Positions 2,274 through 11,237 of a stretch of DNA of 15,047 bases are shown here, one piece after another. The translations under genes and the position numbers were made by a program. Source of the DNA: Deltaproteobacteria bacterium RIFOXYA12_FULL_61_11 (lineage in GTDB: Bacteria; Bdellovibrionota_F; JAHFAK01; YA12-FULL-61-11); the NCBI GenBank assembly GCA_001799195.1, contig MGSU01000068.1, positions 1 to 15,047 on the forward strand, given 5' to 3'. Every line of letters begins with the position of its first letter. Within the stretch, counting starts at the first letter, position 1. Under the pieces are notes generated by a model. That model was not told where the DNA came from. It saw only the letters and a list, made by a program, of their open reading frames with translations, and did no database searches.

Positions 2274-3380
2274 ATGAGCGACCAAGCGATCGAGGATGTG
2301 GAGAAAGAGCGCGGTGGCTGTCTCAAGCCATTGTTGCTCTTGGGAGTTCTTGTGGGACTCGCCTTTGCTGCCGGGGTGCTGATCTTCGGTTCCGTCCTCG
2401 TTGGGCCGACCGAACTCGGGGTCAAGACGGTCCAGTTCGACCTGCCCGGGTTCCTGCGCAAAGGCATGCTCGAGAAGACCTATGGGCCTGGCTATCACTG
2501 GTTCATCCCCTTCGCGGAACAGATCGACACCTTCGACGGCTCGGTCCAGACCTTCCACATGAGCAAGAGTTATCGCGGGGATCGCGAGCACGGCAGTGAA
2601 CCGCTCGAGATCCGCACTCGCGACGAGAGTACGGTGACCCTGGAGGTCATGGTCCTCTACCAGGTCGACCACGCCAATGCCTGGGTCTACTGGCAGAACG
2701 TCGGCAAGAGCGGGTTGCAGGTGAGGCGGTTGGGTACCAAGGTCCGAGATTTACTCAAGCTCTCTCTGGGACAGCTTGGACGGGACGAGTTCTACAGCAA
2801 CGCCAAGGGCCGCGAAGCCCAGTCCAAGAAGGTTGTCGAAGAAATCAACGCCGTCTTCTTGCGGACGCTGGAGTCCGAGGGCGGGCCGCGGCTCGATCCG
2901 CGCGCGGAGGCCATCAGGGTCATCGATGTGTTGATCTCGGACTTCCATTTTACCGAGGAGTACGAGCACAAGATCCGCGACAAGAGCTTGGTCGAGGAAG
3001 AGGTGACGGTGCAACAGGCCCGCGAGAAGACCGAGGAACAACGTGCCGGCTTGCTGGAGATCAAGGCGAAAGGTGAGGCCGAGGTCAAGGTCATCACCGA
3101 GGAAGGGGAAGCCGAGGCGCGGCGGATCAAGGCCGATGCCGACCTTGTTTTCCAGCGCATGCTCGCGCAAGGCGAACTGGCGCTCAAGCTCGCCGAGGCG
3201 GACGGTAAACAAAAACTCACCGAAGCCTTCAAGGGCAGGGGAGGGAAGCTCTCCGCGGCCTTAGAACATGCGCGTACCCTGGAGGGCCTCAAGGTCATGG
3301 TGCTTTCTTCCTCGGGCAAAGAAGGATTCAACCCGCTCGATCCGCGTAAAATGCTCGAACTCTACGATGTGGCAAAATGA
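2274..3380 (+). CDS. Membrane-anchored SPFH/prohibitin-family protein
   Basis: This is a 368-residue protein. A short charged N-terminus (1-18) is followed by one transmembrane helix (about 19-42), an SPFH/Band-7 domain (about 44-235) starting at GPTELGVKTV and including GPGYHWFIPF (71-80), and then a long Glu/Lys/Ala/Gln-rich helical region (about 236-320, e.g. EEEVTVQQAREKTEEQ) of the kind that oligomerises prohibitins, flotillins and HflK/HflC. The orientation expected from the charged N-terminus puts the SPFH domain on the periplasmic side, as in HflK/C. The start is supported by GAGGAG seven bases upstream. The stop overlaps an alternative ATG of the next gene, and the partner lipoprotein follows after 11 bases, so the two probably form a hetero-oligomer. 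SPFH rings scaffold membrane microdomains or control FtsH-type proteases; which role applies here is not visible. Confidence 0.85.
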   Translation: MSDQAIEDVEKERGGCLKPLLLLGVLVGLAFAAGVLIFGSVLVGPTELGVKTVQFDLPGFLRKGMLEKTYGPGYHWFIPFAEQIDTFDGSVQTFHMSKSYRGDREHGSEPLEIRTRDESTVTLEVMVLYQVDHANAWVYWQNVGKSGLQVRRLGTKVRDLLKLSLGQLGRDEFYSNAKGREAQSKKVVEEINAVFLRTLESEGGPRLDPRAEAIRVIDVLISDFHFTEEYEHKIRDKSLVEEEVTVQQAREKTEEQRAGLLEIKAKGEAEVKVITEEGEAEARRIKADADLVFQRMLAQGELALKLAEADGKQKLTEAFKGRGGKLSAALEHARTLEGLKVMVLSSSGKEGFNPLDPRKMLELYDVAK

Positions 3381-3391
3381 AGGAGGGGACG

Positions 3392-4528
3392 ATGAGAATA
3401 GTGGTCATCCTGTTGGCCTTGGCCGCGCTGCTCCCCCTCTCCGGCTGTTCCTTTCAGAAGGTCGAGAGCAACGAGTTGGGCGTGTTGATCAACAATACCT
3501 ATCTGCCCCGCCGTTGGCTGCCCTATCCGACGGGCTGGTGCAAGGGGGTTTCTCCTGAGCCCCTGGAGGCCGGTCGGCACTTCAACCTGCCCTGGTTGCA
3601 GCATATCGAGGTGTTCACCCGTTCGCTGCAAACCATTGCGGTGGTCGATACGACCGGAGACGAAGACCTCCCTCGAGAAGGCTCCCTGCGGCTGAAGACC
3701 TCGGAGGGAAATGATGTCTACGCTGATCTGACGCTCTCCTACAGCATTGATGAAACGAGAGTCATTGCCATCGTGAGAGCCTTCGGCAGTCTCGAGGTCT
3801 TCGAACGGAGGATGATACGGCCAATGACCCGCAGCGTGTGCAGAACCACGTTCGGCGGCTTGTCCACGGCCCAGTTCTCGTTGTCCGAGGAGCGGCGGCG
3901 CATGGCCCTGGAAGCCATCGAGACCCTCAAGCACAGTCTCGAACCCTTCGGTCTGCAGATACGCGATCTGAACGTCGTCGGTTTCCGCTTCAACCCGGAG
4001 TACGAGGCCAAGGTTCGGGAAAAGGAGATGTACAACCAGGAAGCCGAACAGTTCTCGTACTTGCAGAGATCGACCCTGGCCCAAATTGAGGCTCGGAAGA
4101 AGGAGGCCCTCGGTCTCAAGGGCAAGCTCCTGGAGGAAGCCCAAGGCTACCTCAAACAGATGGAACTCCGCGCCTCGTCCATGCTCTACCAGAAAGAGAA
4201 GGCTGCCGAGGCGCTCAAGTTCGAGTTGGTTTCCAGGGCCGAAGGCTTGCACGCGATCAACGCGGCGCTCGACGGGCCGGGAGGCCCCAATCTCGTTTCC
4301 TACGAGTTGGCGCGCACCGTCCGCGGCAAGGACATCCTGCTCCTGCCCTCGGCCGAAGGGGCCTTGCAGGTCACGGACGTCAATGATTTGCTGGTGCGCT
4401 ACCTGACCTCGCGAGCGTTGCACAGTGACCGCGTCGAACCTTCTCCGGCGGTGCCACCGGCAAACGCTCAGGCCGAGCCCGCCCCTTCCTCTCCTCTCCG
4501 ATCCGGAGAGACGCCACCGCAACCCTGA
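3392..4528 (+). CDS. SPFH-domain lipoprotein
   Basis: This encodes 378 residues. I chose ATG 3392 over the in-frame ATG at 3377 (which overlaps the upstream stop) because AAGGAGGGG lies five bases before 3392 and the resulting N-terminus is a clean lipoprotein signal with lipobox LSGC (Cys19). An SPFH-like domain follows (about 24-215: SNELGVLINN, AGRHFNLPWLQHIEVF, LKTSEGNDVYADLTLSYSID). It is followed by a Glu/Lys/Ala-rich coiled segment (about 210-300) and a disordered Pro/Ala tail (about 345-378). Most SPFH proteins are anchored by a transmembrane or hairpin segment, so lipid anchoring is uncommon. The gene is tightly coupled to the TM-anchored SPFH gene just upstream, suggesting a HflK/HflC-like pair with one lipidated subunit. 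Confidence 0.85.
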   Translation: MRIVVILLALAALLPLSGCSFQKVESNELGVLINNTYLPRRWLPYPTGWCKGVSPEPLEAGRHFNLPWLQHIEVFTRSLQTIAVVDTTGDEDLPREGSLRLKTSEGNDVYADLTLSYSIDETRVIAIVRAFGSLEVFERRMIRPMTRSVCRTTFGGLSTAQFSLSEERRRMALEAIETLKHSLEPFGLQIRDLNVVGFRFNPEYEAKVREKEMYNQEAEQFSYLQRSTLAQIEARKKEALGLKGKLLEEAQGYLKQMELRASSMLYQKEKAAEALKFELVSRAEGLHAINAALDGPGGPNLVSYELARTVRGKDILLLPSAEGALQVTDVNDLLVRYLTSRALHSDRVEPSPAVPPANAQAEPAPSSPLRSGETPPQP

Positions 4529-4596
4529 GCGTCTTCCAGGTTCCAGCGGACGAGTTTGCGGTGCGGTAGGTGAGAAACCACTCATTGAAGGTGGCC

Positions 4597-7563
4597 ATGG
4601 TCTCCAGGCTGATCGACCGCCACGCTCTCGAGACGCACCTCACGGAAGGCAGTCTCTACTCGCTCCTCACCCTGCTGCGTTGGTACCTCCGGCTCAATAC
4701 CTCCTTCCGCCGCAATATCGATTTCAAGGCTCCTGGAACCGCCAGACGGACCTATGAGGCCATTTTCCATTTTGTCGCGACCGACGGCACCTGTGCGCTC
4801 AGCGCGAGCTTTGGTTCCGGATCTCTGCGGCTGCGGAAGGGGTTGCACGGTACTGCCGATGCGACCTTCGAGTACCGAGACGGGGCAACCCTACGTTCCA
4901 CCCTGCTGAAGAAGCCGCACGAGGTGCTCGAACTCCTGCTCAGCGGGGAGTTGGTGCTCCGCGGCAATCTCAATCACAGCTCGCGCTTCTCCTACATGCT
5001 CTCCGAGCTGAGCCACCGTCTCGATCCCAGCAGGTTGCTGCGGCGCAATGCGCCTGCTCGACCGCCCGGGGACGTTCCGCTGCACGAGGATAGGACCCGG
5101 GAACTGCTCTCTTCGGTGCCCAGGGACCGGGTCGAGTTGCTCGACGAACAGTATCTCAGTCGCTTCCGGCTCGAGGATTTCCCGCGCCTCGAACGGATCA
5201 AACAACGGATCTTTGCGACCCGGCCGGCCGTGTGCATCGAACGCGCCGAGTTGGTCACCGCCTATCACCGGACCCACGGCTTCCCGGACGAGGCTGTCGG
5301 CCGCGGCGAGGCGGCGCTGCGCCAAGCAAGGATGCTGGAATACGTGCTCGGCAAGCGCCAGGCCTTGATTGCCGAGGACAGCCTGCTCGCTGGCACCACC
5401 ACCACCAAGATGGTCGGCGTGGTCCTCTATCCCGAGTTCTCGGCCGGACTCTTGTGGCCGGAACTCCTGACCGTGGGTACGCGCGAGCTGAACCCATACG
5501 AACTCTCGGCCCAGGACGCCGAGAAGCTGAACCTGGAAATCCTTCCTTACTGGATGGAGGCCACGGTGCGCGAGACGTGCCGCAAGACGTATGGAGCTCC
5601 GCTCTGTCAGCGTCTGGACGAGCGCTTCGCCTTGTACTTCCTGTGGAAGACCGTGGCTGTCTCGCACACCGTGGTCGATTACCCGCGCATTCTCGCCCGC
5701 GGGCTATCGGGGTTGGTCGACGATCTGCGCGAGCGCCTGGCCGGAGTCGAGGACTCCTCTTCGCGCGAATACCTCCAGGCCATGCTCGTGGCGTTGGGTG
5801 CGGTCCAGAACTATGTCCTCAACCTGGCCGCCCAGGCCCGGCGGCTGGCCGAAAAAGAGGAGGATCCGCAGCGTTGGGAGGAGTTGATGCGCCTCACGCG
5901 CATCCTCGGCCGGGTCCCCGCGCAACCGTCGCGAACCCTCGACGAAGCGGTCAACGCGCTGTGGGTGACCTTTGTCGCCTTGCACCTCGAGAACACCAAT
6001 GCCGGGTTGTCCTGGGGGCGGTTGGACCACTGGCTACAACCCTATTTCCTGGCTGACCTCGAGCCCCTGCGCGAAGCCGCCGAACGCGAGGCCTATGTGC
6101 GCCATGCCGTCGAACTGATCAGTTGCCTGTTCCTCTGCTGCGCGGATCACGTTCCCATGGTTCCCAACCTCGGCAACACGCTCTTCGGCGGCAGCTCCTC
6201 GGACATGGCCATCACCCTTGGCGGAGTTGACGCCCAAGGCCGGACCGCGGTGTGCGACATGACCTATGTGTTCCTCAAGGTGACGGAATTGTTGGCCCTG
6301 CGCGATCCGAACGTCAACGCCCGCTACCATCCGGAGGTCAACTCCAAGGCCTACCTGCGCAGACTGTGCGAGGTCAACGCCATTACCCACGCCACGCCCT
6401 CTATCCACAACGACAAGGCCGTACTCGAGGCCCTGACGGCCAATGGGTTCCCCCTCGAGGACGCCCGAGATTTCTGCGCCACGGGCTGCGTCGAGCCGAC
6501 CCTCGCGGGACGGCACATGGGCCACACCAATTGCATGTTGGTGAACACCGTGGCCCCCCTGGAGATGGTCCTGCACGATGGAGTACACCCTTTGCTCGGT
6601 TCCAGGGTCGGACCGGATCCGGGGCCGCTGGGAGCGCACCGGAGTTTCGATTCGCTCCTGCACAGCTATCTCGAGCAGCTTGCCTGGGTGCTCGACCAGG
6701 CGGTCGAGTACAACGACCTGCTCGGCAAGACCCATCAACGGCTTCACCCGACCCCCTTGCTCTCGGCTTTTATCCGAGGACCTGAGACGAGCTGCAAGGA
6801 CGTGCTCGACGGCGGAGCGCTCTTCAACAGCTCGGGGGTGGCCCTGGTCGCATTGCCCGATGTGATCGACAGCTTGGTGGCCCTCGAGTTCGTGGTCTTC
6901 GAGCAGAAGTTCTGCGATCTTTCGACTCTGCGCCGGGCGCTCGACGAGGACTTCGTGGGGCACGAGGTGCTGCACGCCCGCATCCTGCGGCAGGTGCCCA
7001 AGTTCGGCCAGGACCGCCCCGCGGTCAACCGCCTGGCCGACGAATTGCTGGCCTTCATCCACCGTCATCTCACCGGAAAGACCAACTACCGCGGGGGGGC
7101 CTATCTCCCCGGGTATTGGTCAATGTCCAACCACGTCGCCTTCGGCAGGCTCTCCGGGGCTCTGCCGAGCGGTCGCAAGAGGGGCAAGGCCTTCACCCCG
7201 GGCATCACCCCTTCACCCATGGCCGGAGGCGACTTCCTGGACAATATTCGCGGCGTGGCCCGTCTTGATCCACGGCTCCTGCCCAACAACGTGGCGTTCA
7301 ACGTCAAGATCGTCCCGGACGAGGGTGTCGGCCATGCCGCTTCCGTCGACCTCCTCACCGCCTATGCCGGAGCCTATTTCGAACTCGGCGGTATGCAGCT
7401 CCAGTTCAACGTGGTGTCCACCGAGACCCTGCGCCGAGCCATGGAAGAGCCCGACGCCTACCGGTGGTTGATCGTGCGCATCTCGGGTTACAACGCCTAT
7501 TTCGTCGACCTCAACCGGGATCTCCAGATGGAGCTGATCGAGCGCTATGAGCAGTCCTGCTGA
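4597..7563 (+). CDS. Glycyl radical enzyme (PFL-like) with N-terminal SCP2-like domain
   Basis: This encodes 988 residues from ATG 4597; an in-frame GTG at 4570 would add nine residues, and neither start has a strong ribosome site. Residues are counted from 4597. About 40-150 resemble an SCP2 sterol/lipid-carrier fold (FHFVATDGTCAL, LRLRKGLHGTADATFEY, LLSGELVLRGNL). From about 165 onward is a full glycyl radical enzyme barrel. The active-site loop CATGCVEP carries the catalytic Cys631 and Glu633, and the C-terminal radical loop is VRISGYNAYFVDLNRD with the radical Gly964. LSWGRLDHWLQPYF (471-484) is another family hallmark. GCVEP is typical of dehydratase, lyase and eliminase members, unlike the double Cys of pyruvate formate-lyase, so it is probably not PFL itself. 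The substrate is unknown. The extra lipid-binding-type domain hints at a hydrophobic one (inference). The gene overlaps its activase by 17 bases. Confidence 0.92.
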   Translation: MVSRLIDRHALETHLTEGSLYSLLTLLRWYLRLNTSFRRNIDFKAPGTARRTYEAIFHFVATDGTCALSASFGSGSLRLRKGLHGTADATFEYRDGATLRSTLLKKPHEVLELLLSGELVLRGNLNHSSRFSYMLSELSHRLDPSRLLRRNAPARPPGDVPLHEDRTRELLSSVPRDRVELLDEQYLSRFRLEDFPRLERIKQRIFATRPAVCIERAELVTAYHRTHGFPDEAVGRGEAALRQARMLEYVLGKRQALIAEDSLLAGTTTTKMVGVVLYPEFSAGLLWPELLTVGTRELNPYELSAQDAEKLNLEILPYWMEATVRETCRKTYGAPLCQRLDERFALYFLWKTVAVSHTVVDYPRILARGLSGLVDDLRERLAGVEDSSSREYLQAMLVALGAVQNYVLNLAAQARRLAEKEEDPQRWEELMRLTRILGRVPAQPSRTLDEAVNALWVTFVALHLENTNAGLSWGRLDHWLQPYFLADLEPLREAAEREAYVRHAVELISCLFLCCADHVPMVPNLGNTLFGGSSSDMAITLGGVDAQGRTAVCDMTYVFLKVTELLALRDPNVNARYHPEVNSKAYLRRLCEVNAITHATPSIHNDKAVLEALTANGFPLEDARDFCATGCVEPTLAGRHMGHTNCMLVNTVAPLEMVLHDGVHPLLGSRVGPDPGPLGAHRSFDSLLHSYLEQLAWVLDQAVEYNDLLGKTHQRLHPTPLLSAFIRGPETSCKDVLDGGALFNSSGVALVALPDVIDSLVALEFVVFEQKFCDLSTLRRALDEDFVGHEVLHARILRQVPKFGQDRPAVNRLADELLAFIHRHLTGKTNYRGGAYLPGYWSMSNHVAFGRLSGALPSGRKRGKAFTPGITPSPMAGGDFLDNIRGVARLDPRLLPNNVAFNVKIVPDEGVGHAASVDLLTAYAGAYFELGGMQLQFNVVSTETLRRAMEEPDAYRWLIVRISGYNAYFVDLNRDLQMELIERYEQSC

Positions 7564-8464
7564 ACGGTCCGACCGGATCCCTCTGGTCGTTGCGCTCAAA
7601 CGCAATGCCACACACGACGGACCGGGCATCAGGACCGTGGTCTTCTTCAAGGGCTGTCCCTTGACCTGTAGTTGGTGCCACAACCCCGAGATGATCGACC
7701 CACGGCCGCAGTTGATCCTGGATCAGGATCGTTGTCTCCGCTGCGGGGCTTGCGTGGGGATGTGTCCGCGCCGAGCGCTCGGGGAGGGACCTCTGCCGCG
7801 ACTTCTAGAGGAACGTTGTGACCACTGCGGACAGTGCGTAGAAGGCTGCCCGAGTGGAGCGCTGAGCCTGTTCGGACGTCCCTTGACGTGCGACGAGTTG
7901 CTGACCCGGGTGCTCACCGACACGGTGTTCTATGCCCACTCCGGTGGGGGAGTGACCGTCTCCGGCGGCGAAGCCACCCTGTTCCCCCAGTTCGTCGGGG
8001 AGTTCCTGCGCCGTTGCGGGCAGGCCGGACTCCATAGGACCTTGCAAACCTGCGGGCATTTCGGGTGGGCGGCGTTCGTCGAGCAGGTCTTGCCGCACCT
8101 CGAGCTGATCCAGTTCGATCTCAAACTGGTCGACGCGGCTCGACACCTGCGTGCCACGGGGCACAGCAACGCTTTGATCCTGCGCAATCTCCGCACCCTC
8201 TTGGCCGAGGCCAGAGAGAGAGTCGTCGTCCGCAGACCCTTGGTCCCGGGCATCAATTGCGATGAGGCCGACTTGGTGGCCACGGGCAGGTTGCTCACCG
8301 AACTCGGGGTCGAGGAGTTGGTGTTGCTGCGCTACCACCGGCTCTGGTCCTCCAAGGCCGCGCTCGTCGGTAGAACAGGGGATCCCGTTTCTCCCTCGCT
8401 ACTCCCACCGACCGACGAGGCCTTGGCCACCTGGTTGGCACCCCTCTCCTGGCGCTGGGGCTGA
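7547..8464 (+). CDS. Glycyl radical enzyme activating enzyme (radical SAM)
   Basis: This 305-residue protein uses S-adenosylmethionine and a [4Fe-4S] cluster to abstract hydrogen from the glycine of its partner enzyme. The radical-SAM motif is CPLTCSWC (Cys37, 41, 44), preceded by DGPGIRTVVFFKG (24-36). A ferredoxin-like insert has two further four-Cys sets: Cys63/66/69/73 and Cys91/94/97/101. The SAM-binding SGGEAT (139-144) and LQTCGHF follow. This three-cluster layout is typical of activases of the non-PFL glycyl radical enzymes. The start lies inside the end of the upstream gene (17-base overlap), implying translational coupling and identifying that enzyme as the substrate. Ala replaces the common Pro after SGGE, as also seen in some YjjW-type activases. 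Confidence 0.95.
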   Translation: MSSPAERSDRIPLVVALKRNATHDGPGIRTVVFFKGCPLTCSWCHNPEMIDPRPQLILDQDRCLRCGACVGMCPRRALGEGPLPRLLEERCDHCGQCVEGCPSGALSLFGRPLTCDELLTRVLTDTVFYAHSGGGVTVSGGEATLFPQFVGEFLRRCGQAGLHRTLQTCGHFGWAAFVEQVLPHLELIQFDLKLVDAARHLRATGHSNALILRNLRTLLAEARERVVVRRPLVPGINCDEADLVATGRLLTELGVEELVLLRYHRLWSSKAALVGRTGDPVSPSLLPPTDEALATWLAPLSWRWG

Positions 8465-8633: not shown

Positions 8634-11237
8634 ATGTCACGCCAGCTTCCGTCCGTTTTCTTGTCCTTTCTTCTCCTCTCCCTGTTGTTTGTGGGCCAGG
8701 TAAATGCCCAATGGGACGATGACGACGACTGGGGTGACGACGACAGCGATTTCGGCGACGGTGAATTCGACGACGACTGGGGAGACGGCGACGAAGATTT
8801 CGGCGACGGTGATTTCGATGATGATGATTGGGAAGACGAGCCCGGCTACCAGGAAGGCTACAACGCCGGATACTCCGCCGGGCAGTCGACAGGGTATAGC
8901 ACCGGTTACAGCACTGGGGTCAGCGATGGTGCGAAGAACAGCTACAACACCGGTTACAACGCCGGGTACAGCGCCGGGTACGGCACAGGAAAGAACGAGG
9001 GTGCCACGGGCGGCTATGACAAGGGTTATGACGAGGGCTATGATGCCGGGATGGATGCCGGTGAGGCCGCAGGGGTAGCTGCCGGCAAGAATGACGGTTA
9101 TGCCTGGGGGTATGACGAGGGCTCCAAGGCGGCCTATGATACCGGCTACAAGGACGGCTACAAGACCGGTCGGACCGAGGGTGAGCAGTCAGGATACAAC
9201 AAGGGCTACAACGCCGGCTACGAGGTCGGTTACGGGGAAGGAACGCGCAGTACCTATCAGACGGCGTATGACAAGGGCTACAACGAGGGTTACGGCAAGG
9301 GTAAGACCAGCGGGTACGACGACGGGTACGACAAGGGTTATTCCGAAGGATCGACCGCGGCGCACAAGCAAGGCTACGACGCCGGCTATCTCGAGGGGTA
9401 TGCCAAGGGCACGGAAGACGGTGATGCCAAGTACGCCGAAGGCTATGGGAAAGGTCAGACCGATGGGTACAACTCCGGCTACAATAAAGGATATCAGCGA
9501 GGCAAGAACGAGGGCTATGCCCTGGGCTACGCCGAGGCAGAGGTTCGCGGACAGGAAGACGGTTACAACGCCGGATACGAGGTCGGGTTTGCCGAGGGCG
9601 AGGGTCTGACGTATGACGACGGGTTCCTCATCGGTTACCAAGAAGGCTATACCAAGGGCTACGAGCGTGGCAAGGTCGACGGGACGGCCTCAGGGCTCGA
9701 GGCTGGACAGGAAGAAGGTCATCAGGTAGGCCTGGATGGCGATTTCACCGAGATTCATGACCAGAACTTCAACGAAGGTCGCGATCTCGCGGCAAAAGAC
9801 CGCTATGATTCGGGTTTCCAAAAAGGCTACGAAGAAGGCTACCGCAAGGCGTTGACCGAGAGCGGTATGACCGATGAAGAGGTCACCGCGGCGCTGGAAG
9901 AGCAGGAGAAGAAGGGCCTGTGCGGCAGCCTCACCGCTTCCGAGGGGCAGGGCTGGTACTTAGCGTTGTTCCTGGTCACCCTGCTCGCCCTGGTCGGTTT
10001 GCGTGCTGGCAGGCGCCCCATCCTCCTGGCCGGGCTGTTCCTCACCCTGGCCTTGCCCCGAGTCGAGGCCCAGACCTATGACGATGGATATGACGAGGGA
10101 TACGACGACGGCTACGACAGCGGTTACGACAGCGGCTATGCTGCCGGCGTGGGCACGGGGTCGACCGGTCAGTACAACTCAGGCTATAACACCGGCTACG
10201 ATGAGGGCTATACCAAGGGCTGGAACGAGGGATCGGCCGGGCAGTATGAGCGCGGCTATACGACCGGTTACAACGCAGGGTACGAGCTGGCCCAGGATGC
10301 GGGGTACGAGAAGGGCTACAACAACGGTTACGAACAAGGGTACGAACAGGGCTACACCGCCTCGTACAACAGCGGTTACCAGGCCGGTTACACCAAGGGT
10401 TTCGGTGAGGGCGAGCAGGCCCGTTACCAGTCCGGCTACAACGACGGCCTGACCGCCGGACGCACCGACGGACGGGTTGCCGGGACCGATCAGGGCTATC
10501 AGGACGGGTATGCCTCGGGCCAGGACAAGGGCTACCAAGACGGCTACGCGGGCGGCTATAAAACCGGCAAGGCACAGAACTTCAAAGATTATTACAACCA
10601 AGGCAGGGGTGAGGGCTACGGTGCGGGTTATGCCCAGGCGCTGAAGGATCGCTATGACCAAGGCTATCGCGACGGTCACGTCGTCGGGGCCCAGGCCGGC
10701 GATCCGGTCGGCTATGCCAAGGGGTACGAGGACGGTTATGCCCTCGGCCAGGACGAGGGATACCAGGCCGGGTACCAGAAGGTCTACGAGACGGGGCGCA
10801 CCGAGGGTTTCCGCGTCGCCGCCGGCGAGGATTACTTCCAGGGCATCGACGAGGGCAGGGTCCAAGGCGAAGCAGAGGGTTACACGGCCGGCTCGGCCGA
10901 GGGGTACGACCTCGGGTACCAGCAGGGTTTCGAGCTGGGTCTCACTGCCGGGACCGACGAGGGCAGCGCCGCTGCCGCCGCTGAAGGTCTGGCCGAGGGA
11001 CGCGCCGAGGGCAACAGCGCGGTGCACGAACAAGAGGGCTACGAAGCCGGTCTGACGGATGGCTACAAAGCAGGGCAGGCCGAGGCCGAGAATCGCAAGA
11101 CCAGCCTCGCCCAGGCAGAAGAAGAGCACAAGGGGGCCTGTGGTTCCCTCAGGAGCGAGGCCGAGGGTCTACCCATGGCGATTGTGCTCCTGCTCACCTT
11201 CGCTCTCCTGCTCCGCCGTCGCGGTGCAGTGGCCTGA
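8634..11237 (+). CDS. Giant Tyr-x-x-Gly repeat protein: two anchored surface proteins fused in frame
   Basis: This encodes 867 residues. The ATG at 8634 follows AAGGAGG by eight bases and opens a clear signal peptide (FLSFLLLSLLFVGQVNA, cleavage after Ala25), so upstream in-frame starts are rejected. Half 1: an Asp-rich segment (26-70), then about 85 tetrads of Y-x-x-G type (71 to about 407), an acidic linker, CGSL at Cys430, a transmembrane stretch from Trp441 to Leu456 and RAGRR. Half 2 follows at once: a signal-peptide-like hydrophobic run and PRVEA (463-479), then a second set of about 85 tetrads (482 to about 817), CGSL at Cys836, a transmembrane helix and RRR at the C-terminus. Both halves share repeat type and tail design, so a fused tandem duplication is the best reading. 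The regular GxxxG spacing predicts long helices with glycine-mediated packing, as in FliH or Yae1-type repeats (inference). Function is unknown; a surface stalk is possible. Confidence 0.85.
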   Translation: MSRQLPSVFLSFLLLSLLFVGQVNAQWDDDDDWGDDDSDFGDGEFDDDWGDGDEDFGDGDFDDDDWEDEPGYQEGYNAGYSAGQSTGYSTGYSTGVSDGAKNSYNTGYNAGYSAGYGTGKNEGATGGYDKGYDEGYDAGMDAGEAAGVAAGKNDGYAWGYDEGSKAAYDTGYKDGYKTGRTEGEQSGYNKGYNAGYEVGYGEGTRSTYQTAYDKGYNEGYGKGKTSGYDDGYDKGYSEGSTAAHKQGYDAGYLEGYAKGTEDGDAKYAEGYGKGQTDGYNSGYNKGYQRGKNEGYALGYAEAEVRGQEDGYNAGYEVGFAEGEGLTYDDGFLIGYQEGYTKGYERGKVDGTASGLEAGQEEGHQVGLDGDFTEIHDQNFNEGRDLAAKDRYDSGFQKGYEEGYRKALTESGMTDEEVTAALEEQEKKGLCGSLTASEGQGWYLALFLVTLLALVGLRAGRRPILLAGLFLTLALPRVEAQTYDDGYDEGYDDGYDSGYDSGYAAGVGTGSTGQYNSGYNTGYDEGYTKGWNEGSAGQYERGYTTGYNAGYELAQDAGYEKGYNNGYEQGYEQGYTASYNSGYQAGYTKGFGEGEQARYQSGYNDGLTAGRTDGRVAGTDQGYQDGYASGQDKGYQDGYAGGYKTGKAQNFKDYYNQGRGEGYGAGYAQALKDRYDQGYRDGHVVGAQAGDPVGYAKGYEDGYALGQDEGYQAGYQKVYETGRTEGFRVAAGEDYFQGIDEGRVQGEAEGYTAGSAEGYDLGYQQGFELGLTAGTDEGSAAAAAEGLAEGRAEGNSAVHEQEGYEAGLTDGYKAGQAEAENRKTSLAQAEEEHKGACGSLRSEAEGLPMAIVLLLTFALLLRRRGAVA
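8844..9852 (+). repeat. YxxG tetrad repeat array, first half
   Basis: This codes about 85 four-residue units with Gly at position 4 and mostly Tyr at position 1, for example YNAG, YDKG, YDEG, YKDG. The register is kept over almost the whole array, with a single slip near DAKYAEG. A 20-residue (60-base) higher-order unit is visible for several copies in the middle, starting at YDTGYKDGYKTG, YNKGYNAGYEVG, YQTAYDKGYNEG, YDDGYDKGYSEG and YDAGYLEGYAKG. The other positions are rich in Asp, Glu, Lys, Asn and Ala. Confidence 0.9.
9921..10070 (+). other. Internal anchor / signal-peptide junction of the repeat protein
   Basis: Read in frame, this segment encodes CGSLTASEGQG, a hydrophobic run WYLALFLVTLLALVGL, the basic motif RAGRR, a second hydrophobic run ILLAGLFLTLAL and PRVEA followed by Gln480. 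The first part matches the end of the whole protein (CGSL, hydrophobic run, RRR). The second part has the n-, h- and c-regions of a signal peptide, with the basic motif shared by both. A TTG at 9999 could serve as a separate start for the second half, but no ribosome site is visible before it and there is no stop codon. It could equally be a re-entrant transmembrane hairpin with the basic loop in the cytoplasm. Confidence 0.7.
10077..11087 (+). repeat. YxxG tetrad repeat array, second half
   Basis: This codes a further 85 or so tetrads (YDDG, YDEG, YNSG, YQAG, YEDG) in nearly unbroken four-residue register, with one extra residue near HEQEGYEAG. Compared with the first half there are more Gln and Arg and the final third is more degenerate (LTAG, RAEG, SAAA). 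There is no counterpart of the Asp-rich segment that starts the first half. The two arrays are alike in design but not copies at the base level, so the duplication is not recent. Confidence 0.88.

What the first reader, a model, noticed from the sequence alone, without database searches (positions are those of the whole stretch)
8634..11237. Two complete surface-protein genes fused into one ORF, with an anchor and a signal peptide back to back in the middle
The sequence shows signal peptide, YxxG array, CGSL + hydrophobic run + RAGRR, then directly ILLAGLFLTLAL + PRVEA, a second YxxG array, and CGSL + hydrophobic run + RRR. RAGRR serves as both the stop-transfer tail of half 1 and the n-region of a signal peptide for half 2. 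Either a stop codon was lost between duplicated genes, or this is a bacterial 'polyprotein' cut by signal peptidase (and perhaps a sorting protease) into two anchored proteins, or a hairpin-anchored two-arm stalk. TTG 9999 would be an alternative start.
Basis: partly seen in the sequence, partly recalled or inferred. Interest (0 to 1): 0.85.

Follow-up and report, generated by a model that had tools for sequence, protein, structure and literature searches.

The report
Two surface proteins fused in tandem
One bacterial gene encodes two similar secreted surface proteins end to end, with the membrane anchor of the first running straight into the export signal of the second, so it probably makes a precursor that is cut in two; distant predatory-type bacteria encode comparable proteins as two neighbouring genes.

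Summary
One 867-codon ORF (8634-11237, +) reads: signal peptide, Yxx-G array, CGSL + TM + RAGRR, then a 12-residue hydrophobic core with PRVEA|Q, a second array, and CGSL + TM + RRR. The CGSL tail is a real sorting-type tail: at least seven other proteins of this genome carry it at their C-terminus, and only this gene has an internal copy. The tails resemble MYXO-CTERM (two genome tails score just under TIGR03901, one reaches TIGR03382; this protein's own two do not score). The genome has CPBP proteases and a type II secretin. In Bdellovibrionota, Yxx-G lipoproteins occur as adjacent but separate gene pairs (20 pairs in 18 genomes examined, none fused). The halves' synonymous sites are saturated, so this is not a recent copy or repeat misassembly. 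The internal TTG has no Shine-Dalgarno; only one single-base error could restore two genes, and it would strip tail 1 of its arginines. Most likely a real gene fusion, cut by signal peptidase I at 479|480 and a myxosortase-like protease at the cysteines into two anchored proteins. A precedent is published (Myxococcus MXAN_5598, internal MYXO-CTERM). Cleavage is inferred; no close relative was found.

The parts
8634..11237 (+). 867-aa fused ORF (P0001): SP1 - array 1 - tail 1 - SP2 - array 2 - tail 2
   Evidence: AAGGAGG 5' of ATG, anti-SD energy -12.2 kcal/mol
8634..8708 (+). Signal peptide 1, residues 1-25, VNA|Q
   Evidence: cleavage inferred from the (-3,-1) rule
8709..8837 (+). Acidic, Trp-containing linker (DDDDDWGDDD...), half 1 only, residues 26-68
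8841..9890 (+). Yxx-G (GxxxG-type) array 1, about residues 70-419
   Evidence: period 4; Yae1_N repeats E 1e-36 for the whole protein
9921..10016 (+). Internal sorting-type tail 1: CGSL (430-433), TM 440-456, RAGRR 457-461
   Evidence: tail profiles built partly from this tail; independent members in seven other ORFs of the genome
10005..10070 (+). Internal signal peptide 2: n-region AGRR shared with tail 1, h-region ILLAGLFLTLAL 463-474, c-region PRVEA|Q480
   Evidence: AF2 helix 461-473 separated from TM1 at 459-460 (low overall confidence)
9999..10001 (+). In-frame TTG, possible but unsupported internal start
   Evidence: anti-SD -2.7 kcal/mol, weaker than the random internal median -3.6
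10071..11090 (+). Yxx-G array 2, about residues 480-819
11139..11234 (+). C-terminal sorting-type tail 2: CGSL (836), TM 848-860, RRRGAVA

Best explanation
A genuine fusion of two ancient tandem duplicates into one precursor (shown: one open frame, two repeats of the same architecture, divergence at saturation). Inferred mechanism: SP1 targets the chain to Sec. Array 1 crosses the inner membrane. Tail 1 stops transfer with RAGRR in the cytoplasm. The short SP2 reopens translocation, array 2 crosses, and tail 2 stops transfer. Signal peptidase I cuts at 25|26 and 479|480. A CPBP (myxosortase-like) protease then cuts both tails beside Cys430 and Cys836, probably after lipidation. The result is two separately anchored, equimolar GxxxG-repeat helical stalk proteins, comparable to what Bdellovibrionota make from two adjacent lipoprotein genes.
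For: The tail is a family in this genome: ORFs on C17, C339, C297, C2, C290, C283 and C65 all end G-x-CG-x + TM + an Arg-rich end; only this gene has an internal copy. Tails are MYXO-CTERM-like: L021 scores 17.7 and L065 13.8 against cut-off 20 for TIGR03901, L068 15.9 against 15.85 for TIGR03382, TraA control peptide 20.6. A class relative's tail protein (L061) matches a myxosortase-dependent metalloprotease family below cut-off. Four CPBP proteases are present, one nearest archaeomyxosortase MrtA (E 2e-12, below cut-off). A GspD secretin is above cut-off. SP2 has an SP-like 12-residue core and V-x-A|Q matching SP1. Topology is self-consistent, with RAGRR cytoplasmic for both segments. Array proteins in Bdellovibrionota: 20 adjacent pairs in 18 genomes, each gene with its own signal peptide and stop. 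Internal MYXO-CTERM in MXAN_5598 is proposed to be processed (PMC11980579).
Against: No proteomic or biochemical evidence. Seen in one draft MAG only; no relative of this gene in the only class relative held. The protein's own tails do not reach any NCBIfam tail model, and no CPBP protease reaches a myxosortase model cut-off. The Bdellovibrionota proteins lack the tail and have an extra C-terminal domain, so they may be analogues. SP2 cleavage rests on motif rules; no trained signal-peptide predictor was available.
Confidence: 0.55

Rival explanations
1. Uncut fusion: tail 1 and SP2 stay together as a transmembrane hairpin, giving a two-armed stalk, with array 2 tethered to the membrane at both ends.
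For: AF2 places two helices, 414-458 and 461-473, with a break at 459-460 (pLDDT about 70-75 there, low elsewhere). Close spacing of TM1 and SP2.
Against: The SP2 core is only 12 residues, short for a stable TM and shorter than most tails in the genome, and it carries a V-x-A|Q site as in SP1. The CG tail suggests processing.
Confidence: 0.2
2. Sequence or assembly error: one missing base near 10011 joined two overlapping genes (gene 1 stop, gene 2 GTG start at 10003).
For: Among all single edits in 9990-10035, one insertion gives a stop after LRAG and a GTG start with a full SP2. Draft MAG, 342 contigs.
Against: Tail 1 would then end LRAG, losing the Arg cluster that tails of the genome end with. 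No Shine-Dalgarno there. GC3 stays high through the junction. The halves are too divergent for repeat collapse.
Confidence: 0.1
3. Recent, non-adaptive stop loss or decaying fusion with no selected function as a unit.
For: Only one genome; no fused array pair among the 20 Bdellovibrionota pairs examined.
Against: No stop or frameshift anywhere in 867 codons, and SP2 and both tails are intact. No codon just after RAGRR is one substitution from a stop.
Confidence: 0.1
4. Half 2 is also made separately from the internal TTG 9999.
For: TTG is in frame and gives M-RAGRR-h-region-PRVEA|Q.
Against: Upstream anti-SD energy -2.7 kcal/mol, weaker than the random internal median (-3.6) and than ATG 8634 (-12.2).
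Confidence: 0.05

Closest known systems
MYXO-CTERM / myxosortase system of Myxococcota, especially MXAN_5598 (internal MYXO-CTERM; PMC11980579)
   Same: Cys motif + TM + Arg-rich end on signal-peptide-bearing surface proteins; T2SS secretin and CPBP proteases present; in MXAN_5598 the tail is internal and attributed to gene fusion.
   Different: Here both halves are the same kind of repeat protein and both carry a tail, with a signal-peptide-like segment directly after tail 1. Tails score below or at the models, and no CPBP protease reaches an Mrt model cut-off.
Tandem Yxx-G lipoprotein pairs of Bdellovibrionota (mainly Bacteriovoracaceae-type genomes)
   Same: Two adjacent co-directional genes for exported proteins with the same Gly/Tyr period-4 arrays.
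   Different: Separate genes with lipoboxes and stops, no CG tail, extra C-terminal domain.
Bradyrhizobium FbcH (cytochrome b/c1 precursor cut by signal peptidase; from memory, paper not in library)
   Same: A bacterial precursor cut at an internal signal sequence into two membrane-associated proteins.
   Different: Respiratory enzymes, not repeat surface proteins; no sorting tails.
FliH/YscL GxxxG repeats and Yae1_N (PF09811)
   Same: G-[YF]xxG repeats at every fourth residue, thought to form close-packed helix dimers (PMC2674601).
   Different: Those are cytoplasmic; this protein is exported, has arrays of some 350 residues and no FliH C-terminal domain.

Membership tests
MYXO-CTERM sorting tail (TIGR03901/TIGR03382) | Cys-containing motif, TM helix, Arg-rich end | tested here: met
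   Both tails
MYXO-CTERM sorting tail (TIGR03901/TIGR03382) | Score at or above the curated model cut-off | tested here: not met
   Tails of P0001: no hit; L021 17.7 and L065 13.8 against 20, but L068 15.9 against 15.85 for TIGR03382
MYXO-CTERM sorting tail (TIGR03901/TIGR03382) | Tail at the C-terminus of many signal-peptide-bearing proteins of one genome | tested here: met
   Seven further ORFs in the own genome; tail 1 of P0001 itself is internal
MYXO-CTERM sorting tail (TIGR03901/TIGR03382) | Cognate myxosortase (MrtX/MrtC/MrtP-type CPBP) | tested here: inconclusive
   Four CPBP proteins, none over an Mrt cut-off; nearest MrtA 47.6 of 200 bits
MYXO-CTERM sorting tail (TIGR03901/TIGR03382) | Type II secretion system | tested here: met
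   GspD over cut-off
MYXO-CTERM sorting tail (TIGR03901/TIGR03382) | Cys lipidation and cleavage | not testable with these tools
   needs biochemistry
Signal-peptidase-processed polyprotein | Internal signal peptide with n, h, c regions and (-3,-1) site after a cytoplasmic positive loop | tested here: met
   RAGRR, 12-residue core, VEA|Q; rule-based only
Signal-peptidase-processed polyprotein | Two mature products | not testable with these tools
   needs proteomics or a blot
FliH | NCBIfam FliH model cut-off / C-terminal FliH domain | tested here: not met
   178.1 against 180 bits from 12 repeat stretches only

The most novel reading that the evidence does not exclude
A bacterial surface 'polyprotein': one translation product is cut by signal peptidase I and a CPBP sorting protease into two lipid-anchored partner stalks that pair through GxxxG arrays, so fusion fixes 1:1 supply and co-delivery of partners that another phylum encodes as gene pairs.
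Probability: 0.35. Interest if true: 0.62.

Novelty: new variant of a known kind. Interest (0 to 1): 0.45.

Why it matters
It would be a clear case of an internal sorting tail running straight into an internal signal peptide in a bacterium, with both halves carrying tails, so it tests whether C-terminal sorting proteases act on internal tails. It also points to a MYXO-CTERM-like system in a poorly sampled lineage, and to a recurring pairing of Yxx-G surface proteins in Bdellovibrionota that has no explanation here.

Tried and rejected
Relatives in genus, family, order, class and phylum of the genome: only one other genome is held, without a match. First scan of genome contigs with P0001: no relative. 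Phages, near match: none. Plasmids: weak repeat matches only. Viral contigs: 19 repeat matches, not followed. FliH identity rejected: repeats only and below cut-off. Recent duplication rejected: 42% of shared residues use the same codon, equal to expectation. Fold: two AF2 models were low confidence (mean pLDDT 42.7 and 46.0), so no fold search was made. PDB sequences: one weak hit, pyridoxal kinase (E 0.004), taken as a compositional match. The 'open_frame' figures of about 900-1000 aa suggested fused relatives; reading the DNA showed pairs of separate ORFs. The literature library does not hold the FbcH papers.

Full report
Observation. Window 8634-11237 (+) is one open frame of 867 residues. 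The ATG follows AAGGAGG (anti-SD -12.2 kcal/mol). Four hydrophobic stretches stand out: 7-21 (SP1), 440-456 (TM of tail 1), 463-474 (SP2) and 848-860 (TM of tail 2). Between them lie two arrays with a strict period of four residues. Pfam sees 13 Yae1_N stretches, and the NCBIfam FliH models hit through repeats only (178.1 bits against a cut-off of 180).

What the tail is. A profile made from both tails and one found by scanning sampled contigs was run on the whole own genome. It found further tails in C339, C297 and C2, and a second profile added C290 and C283; C65 was seen by eye in a weak match. All are at the C-terminus of ORFs, several with signal peptides or lipoboxes. The internal copy in this window is the only one found. 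The profiles contain the tails of this gene, so its own scores are not independent; the proteins found afterwards are. NCBIfam places the set next to MYXO-CTERM: L021 17.7 and L065 13.8 bits against 20, L068 15.9 against 15.85 for TIGR03382, with the TraA tail as positive control at 20.6. The two tails of this protein gave no hit. The class relative G001 has a metalloprotease with such a tail that matches the myxosortase-dependent MXAN_2677/2678 family below its cut-off. The genome has four CPBP proteins, one closest to archaeomyxosortase MrtA (E 2e-12, well below cut-off), and a GspD secretin above cut-off. I conclude a MYXO-CTERM-like system, not proven membership.

Split or fused relatives. 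This genome is alone in its order among those held, and one other genome shares its class and phylum. In genome contigs the arrays led to Bacteriovoracaceae and other Bdellovibrionota, and to some unrelated repeat proteins. A search of 368 genomes of that phylum gave 53 with matches. Reading the DNA of the strongest showed 20 adjacent co-directional pairs of Yxx-G lipoprotein genes in 18 genomes, with gaps of 3 to 246 bases, each gene with its own signal peptide and stop; none fused. The regions were mostly picked because they had two matches, so this is not an unbiased frequency; singletons also occur. These proteins lack the CG tail and have a shared C-terminal domain, so homology beyond the repeat is not shown.

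Is the fusion real? Of 158 aligned identical residues in the halves 42% share the codon, the expectation from codon usage. Synonymous sites are therefore saturated, which speaks against a recent duplication and makes repeat collapse in assembly unlikely. GC at third positions remains 0.80-0.90 from 9843 through the junction. All single-base edits in 9990-10035 were tried: two create a stop before 10060. One of these, an insertion before 10011, would also yield a GTG start in frame with SP2, but would leave tail 1 as LRAG without its arginines. TTG 9999 has no Shine-Dalgarno. Without reads the indel rival stays at about one in ten.

Mechanism. Steps shown: one frame, duplicated architecture, sorting-type tails, SP-like second core with a (-3,-1) site. 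Steps inferred: re-initiation of translocation by SP2, cleavage at 479|480, cleavage or lipidation at the cysteines, and pairing of the arrays as helices. FliH work proposes that such GxxxG repeats mediate helix-helix contacts (PMC2674601). AF2 gives helices in both models but with low confidence, so the stalk is a suggestion.

Known precedents. Guo, Haft and Wall (PMC11980579) describe MXAN_5598, with an internal MYXO-CTERM followed by a beta-barrel part, attributed to a possible fusion of two genes, and propose that its N-terminal part is processed. They cite evidence that C-terminal sorting tags work in the middle of a protein. From memory, Bradyrhizobium FbcH is a bacterial precursor cut by signal peptidase at an internal signal sequence. 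The present case joins the two ideas and is therefore a new variant, not a new kind.

Noticed in passing
L120-L135, L139, L070, L071, L109 (Bdellovibrionota): Adjacent pairs of Yxx-G repeat lipoprotein genes with a common C-terminal domain recur in many genomes; function and reason for pairing unknown.
   Followed up: partly
L004:5005-8346 (own genome, contig C127): A separate 1113-aa coiled-coil protein with an N-terminal hydrophobic segment and GxxxG-type repeats; the only other array protein found in this genome.
   Followed up: no
window 4570-8464: Glycyl radical enzyme of 997 aa with about 200 extra N-terminal residues before the PFL domain, overlapping its activase gene; not over the cut-off of any named subfamily.
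   Followed up: no
window 2274-4528: Two overlapping SPFH/Band 7 genes, the second with a lipobox-like N-terminus.
   Followed up: no
L159:3955-4671 and 5344-6240 (own genome, contig C97): Two CPBP protease genes near each other, one MrtA-like: candidate processing enzymes for the CG tails.
   Followed up: partly
P0001 against NCBIfam NF004270: Repeats alone bring this exported protein within 2 bits of the FliH cut-off, a trap for automatic annotation.
   Followed up: yes
L140-L158 (IMG/VR contigs): Yxx-G array proteins also occur on viral contigs.
   Followed up: no
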